Below, piece after piece: positions 24,542-25,489 of a stretch of DNA of 44,031 bases (position 1 is the first letter of the stretch; each line of letters begins with the position of its first letter). Made by a program: the position numbers and the translations under genes. Below the pieces are notes generated by a model that searched no databases, had not been told where the DNA came from, and saw only the letters and a program-made list of their open reading frames with translations. This DNA is from Catellatospora methionotrophica (GTDB lineage Bacteria > Actinomycetota > Actinomycetes > Mycobacteriales > Micromonosporaceae), in contig NZ_JAAOTJ010000036.1 in assembly GCF_011297335.1 (NCBI RefSeq), positions 1 through 44,031 on the forward strand, given 5' to 3'.

Positions 24542-24648
24542 GCAACGCGGCGCGGGTCTGGCACTGTCACCGCCGACACACCCCTCTGCGCGGAGCGCGG
24601 CGGTGCTGCGAAGATGTCCCCACTTTCCGCATGATGTCGGTGCCGCCT

Positions 24649-24694
24649 TTGTCGGTGGGCTCTGATAGAACATGCGTATCAAACATGTGTTCGG
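24649..24694 (+). promoter_or_regulatory. Dual DNA-damage control region: RecA-NDp/PafBC-type promoter and LexA-type SOS box
   Basis: TTGTCGGTG (24649-24657), eight bases, then TAGAAC (24666-24671) matches the mycobacterial RecA-independent damage promoter TTGTCRGTG-N8-TANNNT except for the last base. Just downstream, TCAAACATGTGTTCGG (24679-24694) matches the actinobacterial LexA box TCGAAC-N4-GTTCGA in 10 of 12 defined positions. The predicted transcription start falls at the box. The gene start is 53 bases further on. A second TGTCGGTG lies at 24635-24642. Confidence 0.65.
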
Positions 24695-24747
24695 CGAGGG
24701 TGGATGCGGTGGCCGTGCTGCCGCTGGTGGAGGGTGGGAGCGCGGTT

Positions 24748-25443
24748 ATGGCACTGTCGACTCAGGAGTTGACGCAGATCCAGGAGACGCTTGCGACCGG
24801 CAAGCGGCCCAGGGTCATGTTCACCGAGGCGGCCGGCCAGATCGCGGGCCAGCTGGGACAGGTCGTGCAGCTCGACGACCCGGCCGCCCACGATGAGTGG
24901 ATCATGGTGAAGTTCGGCAGCGACGTGCTGCCGTTCGCGCCCGGCGACCTCATCATCGCGCCCAAGGGCGCCACGGGCCGCAAGCCCGCGCCCGAGCCGG
25001 TTCCGGAGCCCGTCGCCCCGCCCGAGCCCGAGTTCATGATCATCCGTGAGAAGCCTGTCCGTCAGGAGCGACCCGTGTCCGTAAATCCCGAGGTGTCCGA
25101 GCAGGAGACGCCCGTCGTCGCGCCCGCCCCGCGCAGGCCCGCCGCCGGCAAGGGCCCGAAGGTCAAGCCGCCGGCCGGGCTGACCGTGACGCTGGCCTAC
25201 ACCGAGGGCGAGTGGACGGTCGGCGCGGTCCAGGGCACCAAGGCGCTCGCCAAGCCGTACATCATCAAGGCCCAGGAGGCGCTGAAGATGGTGTCGATGC
25301 TGGACGTGCCGGGGGTGCAGGAGGCGGTGGAGCACATCCTGTCCGCCGAGCGGGCCGAGGCCGAGTCGCACGCGCTGAAGCTGCGCGCGGAGCTGGCCGA
25401 GCTGGAGGCCAAGCTCGCCGAGCTGGGCGCGGCAGGCGCCTGA
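24748..25443 (+). CDS. Coiled-coil protein with predicted DNA-damage regulation
   Basis: A 231-residue soluble protein with three parts. Residues 1-77 form a compact alpha/beta domain (LTQIQETLATGKRPRVMFTE; DEWIMVKFGSDVLPFAPGDL). A Pro/Glu/Ala-rich linker runs to about 150, and residues 150-231 have a VTLAYTEGEWTVGAV strand pair followed by a long coiled coil (HALKLRAELAELEAKLAELG). It resembles actinobacterial proteins grouped under DUF6319, as far as I recall. ATG 24748 has GGGAG about nine bases upstream. The regulatory region predicts induction by DNA damage through both PafBC and LexA. A strong terminator follows, so it is monocistronic. Confidence 0.8.
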   Translation: MALSTQELTQIQETLATGKRPRVMFTEAAGQIAGQLGQVVQLDDPAAHDEWIMVKFGSDVLPFAPGDLIIAPKGATGRKPAPEPVPEPVAPPEPEFMIIREKPVRQERPVSVNPEVSEQETPVVAPAPRRPAAGKGPKVKPPAGLTVTLAYTEGEWTVGAVQGTKALAKPYIIKAQEALKMVSMLDVPGVQEAVEHILSAERAEAESHALKLRAELAELEAKLAELGAAGA

Positions 25444-25454
25444 AGTCCGACGCG

Positions 25455-25489
25455 AAGCGGGGCGGCCGTCACGGCCGCCCCGCTTTTTT
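25455..25489 (+). terminator. Strong rho-independent terminator
   Basis: A 14-bp perfect stem (25455-25468 with 25472-25485), three-base loop TCA, and a T run at 25484-25489. It ends the coiled-coil gene. The stem is symmetrical enough to act on convergent esterase transcripts as well. Confidence 0.93.

What the first reader, a model, noticed from the sequence alone, without database searches (positions are those of the whole stretch)
24634..25443. A gene of unknown function wired to both DNA-damage pathways
The sequence upstream of the coiled-coil protein shows TTGTCGGTG-N8-TAGAAC (24649-24671), close to the PafBC/RecA-NDp promoter, and then TCAAACATGTGTTCGG (24679-24694), close to the LexA box, placed at the expected start of transcription. 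Mycobacterial recA is known to use both controls. A non-repair-like protein with a compact N-terminal domain, Pro/Glu linker and long coiled coil under both controls would be a new damage-response component. The gene is monocistronic with a very strong terminator, as if its dose matters.
Basis: partly seen in the sequence, partly recalled or inferred. Interest (0 to 1): 0.82.

Follow-up and report, generated by a model that had tools for sequence, protein, structure and literature searches.

The report
DNA-damage-wired gene of unknown function
A gene of unknown function in a Catellatospora-type soil bacterium carries, just before its start, sequences that match the control sites of both known actinobacterial DNA-damage pathways; relatives in other genera keep one or both, so it is likely a conserved part of the DNA-damage response, and its protein is predicted to be a paired, DNA-associated adaptor.

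Summary
TTGTCGGTG-N8-TAGAAC (24649-24671) and TCAAACATGTGTTCGG (24679-24694) occur once each in the window, at one gene, whose start is ATG 24748. Alone the LexA match is near chance; relatives decide it. In Micromonosporaceae the PafBC-type core stands at the same spacing in 31 of 34 genomes (21 of 24 genera), a LexA box in 26 of 34 (16 of 24), both in 24 of 34. The deviant TCAAAC half-site is that of the clade's lexA operator. LexA, a PafB-like and a PafC protein are encoded. Distant DUF6319 relatives keep damage wiring but change regulator: PafBC-type element in 29 of 30 Nocardia-like loci, LexA box in 27 of 28 Mycobacterium-like upstreams. Against: the -10 never ends in T in Micromonosporaceae (0 of 31), and no transcription data exist here. 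The predicted fold is an SH3/KOW-like barrel, a linker with a basic patch, and a beta plus coiled-coil domain. The molecular role, a damage-induced DNA-associated dimeric adaptor, is inferred.

The parts
24649..24657 (+). PafBC-type -26 element TTGTCGGTG
   Evidence: the core is at the same spacing in 31 of 34 Micromonosporaceae genomes
24663..24671 (+). extended -10 TGA-TAGAAC (8-base spacer to the -26 element)
   Evidence: TGn present in 29 of 31 orthologue cores, final T in 0 of 31
24679..24694 (+). LexA-type operator TCAAACATGTGTTCGG, at the inferred start of transcription (about +1 to +16)
   Evidence: LexA matrix score 24.4; 13 of 16 letters equal the reverse complement of the clade's lexA operator TCGTACAGATGTTTGA; start of transcription inferred from the -10, not measured
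24748..25443 (+). CDS, 231 aa, distant DUF6319 relative
24748..24960 (+). N-terminal SH3/KOW-like barrel domain (residues 1-71)
24961..25176 (+). disordered Pro/Glu/Ala linker (residues 72-143), with a basic stretch at 25129-25176
   Evidence: pLDDT under 50 for residues 76-138; net positive charge before the C-domain in 315 of 315 relatives measured, of 361 proteins held
25177..25440 (+). C-terminal domain: three strands, one helix, long coiled-coil helix (residues 144-231)
   Evidence: DUF6319 region in relatives
25454..25486 (+). intrinsic terminator

Best explanation
This is a conserved DUF6319-related gene whose promoter carries a PafBC-type element and, overlapping the inferred transcription start, a LexA-type operator, so DNA damage likely switches it on only when LexA is removed and PafBC is activated together, and its product is predicted to be a coiled-coil dimer that would act as a DNA-associated adaptor. 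Shown: both sequence elements, their conservation across genera, and the presence of LexA, a PafB-like and a PafC protein in the genome. Predicted: the two-domain architecture. Inferred: that LexA and PafBC bind here, the start of transcription, induction by damage, dimerisation, contact of the basic linker with DNA, and recruitment of a partner by the N-terminal SH3/KOW-like barrel.
For: Both elements are unique in the window and stand together, the box starting 7 bases after the -10. Conservation across genera. The half-site TCAAAC, which deviates from the textbook box, is the one in the lexA operator in 8 of 8 Catellatospora-genus lexA upstreams read, of 11 genomes. recA of the same genome carries both a LexA box and a PafBC-type P1 (TTGTCGGACCCAGCGCCTAGCGT), about 80 bases apart. 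pafA is followed by a WYL protein and an HTH_PafC protein in tandem. The 7 exact matches to TGTCRGTG-N8-TAG in this genome include, besides this gene, an AlkZ-like glycosylase and a WGR-domain protein. Relatives keep damage wiring with a changed regulator: PafBC-type in 29 of 30 Nocardia-like loci with a LexA box in 0 of 25; LexA in 27 of 28 Mycobacterium-like upstreams. For the adaptor: AF2 models, SH3/KOW-like N-domain (weak KOW2_Spt5 hit, E 0.001, in relative L198), and a net positive stretch before the C-domain in 315 of 315 relatives measured.
Against: The -10 of the Micromonosporaceae promoters never ends in T (0 of 31), unlike recA P1 and the recalled TANNNT. A PafBC matrix trained on recA P1 gives the same site in orthologues -2.5 (p 0.10) and in the window leader prefers another string 15 bases upstream. 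The core with up to 1 mismatch is only modestly enriched genome-wide: 75 + 65 matches against 42 + 45 for the reversed control. LexA box missing or under threshold in 8 of 34 genomes, PafBC core in 3 of 34; three of the counted boxes are borderline (12.0, 13.8, 14.1). LexA box in 0 of 9 order-level upstreams; neither element in 10 of 10 class-level genomes with a readable start. The basic stretch is not unique: 2 to 13% of all 28-residue pieces of these proteins are as positive. The C-domain also forms the tail of four MFS-type transporters of this genome, so the domain itself is not specific to DNA; three of them have no LexA-type hit of 10 or more in the fetched DNA and one, L071, has a borderline 12.4 some 235 bases upstream of its frame. 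PMC9380542 (passages) reports from an initial search that the mycobacterial PafBC motif is not conserved in S. venezuelae. No fold match above noise for the C-domain.
Confidence: 0.65

Rival explanations
1. Only one of the two sites works in this genome: LexA represses a promoter with an extended -10, and the TTGTCGGTG string is a relic or has become part of an ordinary promoter.
For: -10 lacks the final T in 31 of 31 cores while TGn is kept in 29 of 31; the recA-trained PafBC matrix scores the site weakly.
Against: The -26 core and its exact spacing are kept in 31 of 34 genomes, and a PafBC-type element is kept in Nocardia-like loci where no LexA box was found, so it appears to be under selection by itself.
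Confidence: 0.15
2. The protein is a damage-induced growth or division checkpoint factor that binds a protein partner (in the manner of SulA, SidA or ChiZ, recalled), not a DNA-associated adaptor.
For: Such inhibitors are a usual class of SOS genes without a repair domain (recalled); coiled coil and SH3-like domain suit protein binding.
Against: No Pfam or NCBIfam family found and no hydrophobic segment by eye (no predictor was run); the constant basic stretch beside the C-domain suggests nucleic acid.
Confidence: 0.25
3. A transport- or translation-related housekeeping protein with incidental damage control; the C-domain is a general cytosolic coiled-coil tail.
For: The same C-domain ends MFS-type transporters L069-L072; some database names say translation initiation factor, mucin or cell wall anchor.
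Against: The names look like composition artefacts (judgement); damage wiring recurs with different regulators in three lineages.
Confidence: 0.1
4. The two motifs are chance matches or are kept only by recent common descent.
For: A textbook LexA match as good as this occurs in 14 of 100 shuffles of the window.
Against: Kept in most of 24 genera although flanks and distances have diverged; regulator swapped in distant relatives.
Confidence: 0.03

Closest known systems
mycobacterial and own recA promoter region (PafBC P1 plus LexA-controlled P2)
   Same: both a PafBC-type element and a LexA box upstream of one gene (PMC8223512 and PMC11804915, passages; own recA)
   Different: in recA the two are separate promoters or sites about 80 bases apart; here the LexA box overlaps the inferred start of the PafBC-type promoter, which would give one promoter needing both events
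uvrA, uvrC and other genes said to carry both RecA-NDp and SOS box in mycobacteria (PMC8223512, passages)
   Same: dual damage control
   Different: those named are repair genes; this is a protein of unknown function and of another family. How the two sites are arranged in them was not seen
DUF6319, PF19844
   Same: C-terminal domain and, in Nocardia-like and Nakamurella-like relatives, full-length architecture
   Different: the window protein itself is below the Pfam cut-off; the Mycobacterium-like member read (L208) lacks the N-terminal domain
SCO6735 macrodomain gene of Streptomyces coelicolor (PMC5087735, passages)
   Same: gene tied to the damage response through a RecA-NDp promoter and reported as UV-inducible
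   Different: unrelated protein; no LexA box in the passages seen

Membership tests
LexA (SOS) regulon | LexA box of the clade's own type | tested here: met
   score 24.4, median of training sites 22.6; same half-site as the lexA operator
LexA (SOS) regulon | box at a place where it can block transcription, kept in orthologues | tested here: met
   26 of 34 genomes, 16 of 24 genera; in the window 13 bases after the start of the -10
LexA (SOS) regulon | LexA encoded in the genome | tested here: met
   G000:C36 and a second LexA match at C3
LexA (SOS) regulon | LexA binding and damage induction | not testable with these tools
   needs EMSA and transcripts
PafBC regulon | -26 element TTGTCRGTG (consensus recalled) | tested here: met
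   TTGTCGGTG, exact
PafBC regulon | 8-base spacer to TA of the -10 | tested here: met
   window and 31 of 34 genomes
PafBC regulon | -10 TANNNT (recalled) | tested here: not met
   TAGAAC; 0 of 31 orthologue cores end in T. Hence called PafBC-type, not a regulon member
PafBC regulon | PafB and PafC encoded near pafA | tested here: met
   WYL/WCX protein (PafB by position) and HTH_PafC protein, E 1.3e-43
PafBC regulon | PafBC-dependent induction | not testable with these tools
   needs a pafBC deletion
DUF6319 (PF19844) | window protein above the Pfam cut-off | tested here: not met
   no PF19844 line up to E 1; 5 of 17 alignment members match at E up to 1; relative P0119 passes the cut-off, 24.8 against 23.9 bits
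DUF6319 (PF19844) | homology to accepted members over both domains | tested here: met
   query hits the Nocardia-like genome G056 at E 1.4e-12 over residues 3-226; that protein matches PF19844 at 3e-15
KOW/SH3-like domain proteins | barrel fold of the N-domain | tested here: inconclusive
XRCC4/PAXX/SAS-6 head-and-stalk proteins | shared head fold | tested here: inconclusive
   XRCC4 and SAS-6 rows cover only the stalk helix, residues 51-96 of the C-domain model

The most novel reading that the evidence does not exclude
DUF6319 and its relatives are a core DNA-damage protein family of Mycobacteriales that has been overlooked: a damage-induced dimeric scaffold that coats or bridges DNA through its basic stretch and recruits a repair or transcription partner through an SH3/KOW-like barrel, and whose control was rewired in evolution between PafBC alone, LexA alone, and both on one promoter acting as an AND gate.
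Probability: 0.3. Interest if true: 0.82.

Novelty: new variant of a known kind. Interest (0 to 1): 0.66.

Why it matters
It gives a large family of unknown function (1,575 proteins at E up to 0.001, clustered at 90% identity, for one Mycobacterium-like member alone) a concrete, testable place in the DNA-damage response, and shows what looks like a natural case where a gene family kept damage control while the controlling pathway changed. The single promoter with both sites would let one ask directly how LexA release and PafBC activation combine. No paper in the held library contains the word DUF6319; mentions under locus tags, or in supplementary regulon tables, were not searched.

Tried and rejected
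Start at 24631/24634: rejected, because the leader holds both motifs and the upstream starts are not kept in orthologues. A PafBC matrix from 19 recA P1 sites: too narrow (all end in T by the way they were picked, 18 of 19 in CGT; 3 of 30 recA loci gave no site), it misplaces several sites, the window's among them; replaced by the core pattern. In one search four upstreams were mis-scored because the wrong core was picked (L020, L021) or none was found (L047, L048); one search scans for the box independently of the core. The null contained the true sites and was replaced. Relaxed PafBC patterns occur by chance (0.22 per 240 bases), so only the strict core or the specific Nocardia form (TGTCGG[TC]G-N8-CATNNT) is counted; 7 of 9 order-level upstreams with a relaxed form is weak evidence. 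Gene neighbourhood: SDR upstream and cyd genes downstream in the window and L010, a cydA-like frame also in L020; other loci were not checked for this, and candidate neighbours of 15 loci were only glanced at by their first residues, without a shared one seen. Fold comparison of the C-domain: HIV integrase core, PAXX and XRCC4 rows are within noise or cover only the helix; not used. Solved-structure sequence search: best E 0.039, ribosomal protein L9, not used. Anti-phage defence families: none for 3 proteins scanned. PF19844 in the own genome: none, and no control genome rang, so the answer is empty.

Rows dropped before counts: 3 of 37 Micromonosporaceae genomes with gene fragments (G015, G028, G034); G040 (C-domain only) among 10 order-level matches; 2 of 30 Mycobacterium-like loci not located (L222, L224); 5 of 30 Nocardia-like loci not located, but all 30 scanned; 46 of 361 proteins, where the place was not found. 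Loci were fetched for 30 of 45 Mycobacterium-like and 30 of 59 Nocardia-like genomes with a match. Nocardia and Mycobacterium are inferred names for the unnamed genera g46 and g34, from named best hits.

Full report
What is there. The window lies in an 8.39 Mb genome whose nearest named relatives found are Catellatospora. The gene in question starts at ATG 24748 and ends at 25443, 231 residues. By reading of the translations, an SDR-family gene diverges upstream and an esterase-like gene converges downstream, with a strong terminator at 25454-25486, so it appears to be transcribed alone. The leader carries TTGTCGGTG-GGCTCTGA-TAGAAC at 24649-24671 and TCAAACATGTGTTCGG at 24679-24694.

Chance. 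The textbook LexA search gives one match with two mismatches where 0.16 is expected, so the box alone proves little. I therefore took LexA sites from upstreams of recA (30 loci) and lexA in relatives and built a matrix from 51 distinct sites. The window site is not among them and scores 24.4 against a training median of 22.6. In 262,835 background positions 2 reach 12 and none reaches 20. Within the window it is the only position of 12 or more, and the PafBC-type core TGTC[AG]N11TA also occurs once, at the same gene. The letter that makes the site look imperfect, A in TCAAAC, is explained: the lexA operator in all 8 Catellatospora-genus lexA upstreams read (of 11 genomes) is TCGTACAGATGTTTGA, whose reverse complement is TCAAACATCTGTACGA, 13 of 16 letters equal.

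Orthologues. A relative is found in 47 of 61 genomes, all 37 of the family and 10 of 24 beyond it, and in 19 named loci. In 34 family genomes with a readable gene start, the PafBC-type core is present in 31 and a LexA box of 12 or more in 26, both in 24; by genus 21, 16 and 14 of 24. Eleven of the 34 are of the window's own genus. Among the 19 named loci, which partly repeat those genomes, 19 have the core and 18 the box. For boxes found downstream of the core the distance varies from 8 to 20 bases after the start of the -10, in g8 and g26 the box overlaps the -10, and flanks have diverged, so this is not mere recent descent. The misses: the core is absent in g14, g23 and g27; the box is absent or under threshold in g5, g7 (9.6), g12, g13, g14, g15, g17 and g22; g26, g8 and g2 are borderline (12.0, 13.8, 14.1).

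The promoter is not a textbook PafBC promoter. In 31 orthologue cores the -10 never ends in T, while TG one base before the hexamer is present in 29. recA P1 of the same genome is TTGTCGGACCCAGCGCCTAGCGT, with a final T and no TG. I read this as an extended -10 that makes up for a poor hexamer; that is inference. A matrix trained on recA P1 sites does not pick this site. The consensus TTGTCRGTG-N8-TANNNT is recalled; the passages I saw did not print its letters.

The regulators exist here. LexA is encoded. Downstream of pafA lie two tandem WYL-domain proteins, the second with the PafC helix-turn-helix domain at E 1.3e-43. Seven places in the genome match TGTCRGTG-N8-TAG exactly; they include, besides this gene, an AlkZ-like glycosylase (PF06224) and a WGR-domain protein (PF05406), whose frames start 9 and 44 bases after the TAG. 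The other four are an orphan protein (L074), an alpha/beta-hydrolase-like frame (L075) and two without a clear gene. Control: with one mismatch allowed the pattern has 75 + 65 matches and its reversed form 42 + 45, so single matches away from orthologue evidence mean little; for the palindromic LexA pattern the figures are 53 against 13.

The wider family. The C-terminal domain is a distant relative of DUF6319: the window protein itself does not appear in Pfam's list for it, 5 of 17 orthologues match at E up to 1, one relative passes the cut-off, and the query reaches a Nocardia-like protein that is a clear DUF6319 member. Nakamurella-like and Nocardia-like relatives have both domains. In the Nocardia-like genus all 59 genomes searched have the gene, and 29 of 30 fetched loci carry exactly one TGTCGG[TC]G-N8-CATNNT, 62 to 85 bases before the first matched codon; none of 25 has a LexA box. 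In the Mycobacterium-like genus 45 of 118 genomes have a match; the member read is a short form without the N-domain, and 27 of 28 located upstreams carry a LexA box such as TCGAACGTGTGTTCTA. In the outer flanks of these two sets of loci 5 of 116,230 positions reach 12. A further genus of that family shows LexA-type boxes in both members read (L198, L202) and another (L197) a relaxed PafBC-like element (few cases). Ten of ten class-level genomes with a readable start show neither. At order level 7 of 9 upstreams have a relaxed PafBC-like element, which is weak evidence, and 0 of 9 a LexA box. So in three lineages damage wiring is kept while the regulator changes.

How it likely works (inferred). 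Without damage, LexA on about +1 to +16 blocks the start and PafBC is inactive. Damage gives single-stranded DNA; RecA filaments trigger LexA cleavage, and single-stranded DNA activates PafBC, which lets sigma-A RNA polymerase use promoters with the -26 element (mechanism from PMC11804915, PMC6789036 and PMC8223512, passages). Both inputs act on one promoter, so output would be an AND gate, unlike recA, where the sites are apart. The product would pair through its coiled coil, touch DNA by the basic stretch, and recruit a partner with the barrel.

What is known. Genes with both controls are known in mycobacteria: recA, uvrA, uvrC (PMC8223512, passages). RecA-NDp promoters outside mycobacteria are known (PMC5087735 and PMC8223512, passages). 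A LexA study of S. venezuelae reports from an initial search that the mycobacterial PafBC motif is not conserved there (PMC9380542, passages). PMC5656591 and PMC8151990 were also seen as passages only. The library has no paper with the word DUF6319, and a search for Micromonospora with SOS response and LexA lists 3 papers, none on this by title. Regulon tables in supplements were not searched.

Verdict. The finding is real and its regulatory reading is well supported by comparative evidence. The kind of control is known; the gene family in this role, the LexA box on the PafBC-type promoter itself and the change of regulator between lineages were not described in the passages I saw. No experiment stands behind it.

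Noticed in passing
L069:1873-2142, L070:1955-2233, L071:1802-2083, L072:2031-2312 (own genome), L073:2066-2344: MFS-type transporters end in the same three-strand plus coiled-coil domain as the window protein.
   Followed up: partly
24634-24642: A second ATGTCGGTG stands 15 bases upstream of the -26 element; most Catellatospora-genus leaders show a similar TGTC[AG]GTG there (by eye).
   Followed up: no
L074, core at 1501 on the reverse strand: An orphan 220-residue protein without Pfam family follows TGTCAGTG-N8-TAGAAT and a GTGTACGA half-site; perhaps another damage gene of unknown function.
   Followed up: partly
lexA upstreams, e.g. L164, L166-L171, L177: The lexA operator in this clade is asymmetric (TCGTACAGATGTTTGA), with a CAAAC half-site that textbook box searches score down.
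   Followed up: partly
G000:C3:28714-29331 (L178): A second LexA-family gene in the genome; 10 of 11 genomes of the genus have a second match over the cut-off.
   Followed up: no
L206 and L208, upstream of the short DUF6319 gene: The DNA just upstream looks like the end of a transposase gene in two Mycobacterium-like loci (by eye).
   Followed up: no
P0008, P0014, P0060, P0160, P0261: Database names such as translation initiation factor, cell wall anchor protein and mucin for this family look like artefacts of the Pro/Ala-rich linker.
   Followed up: no
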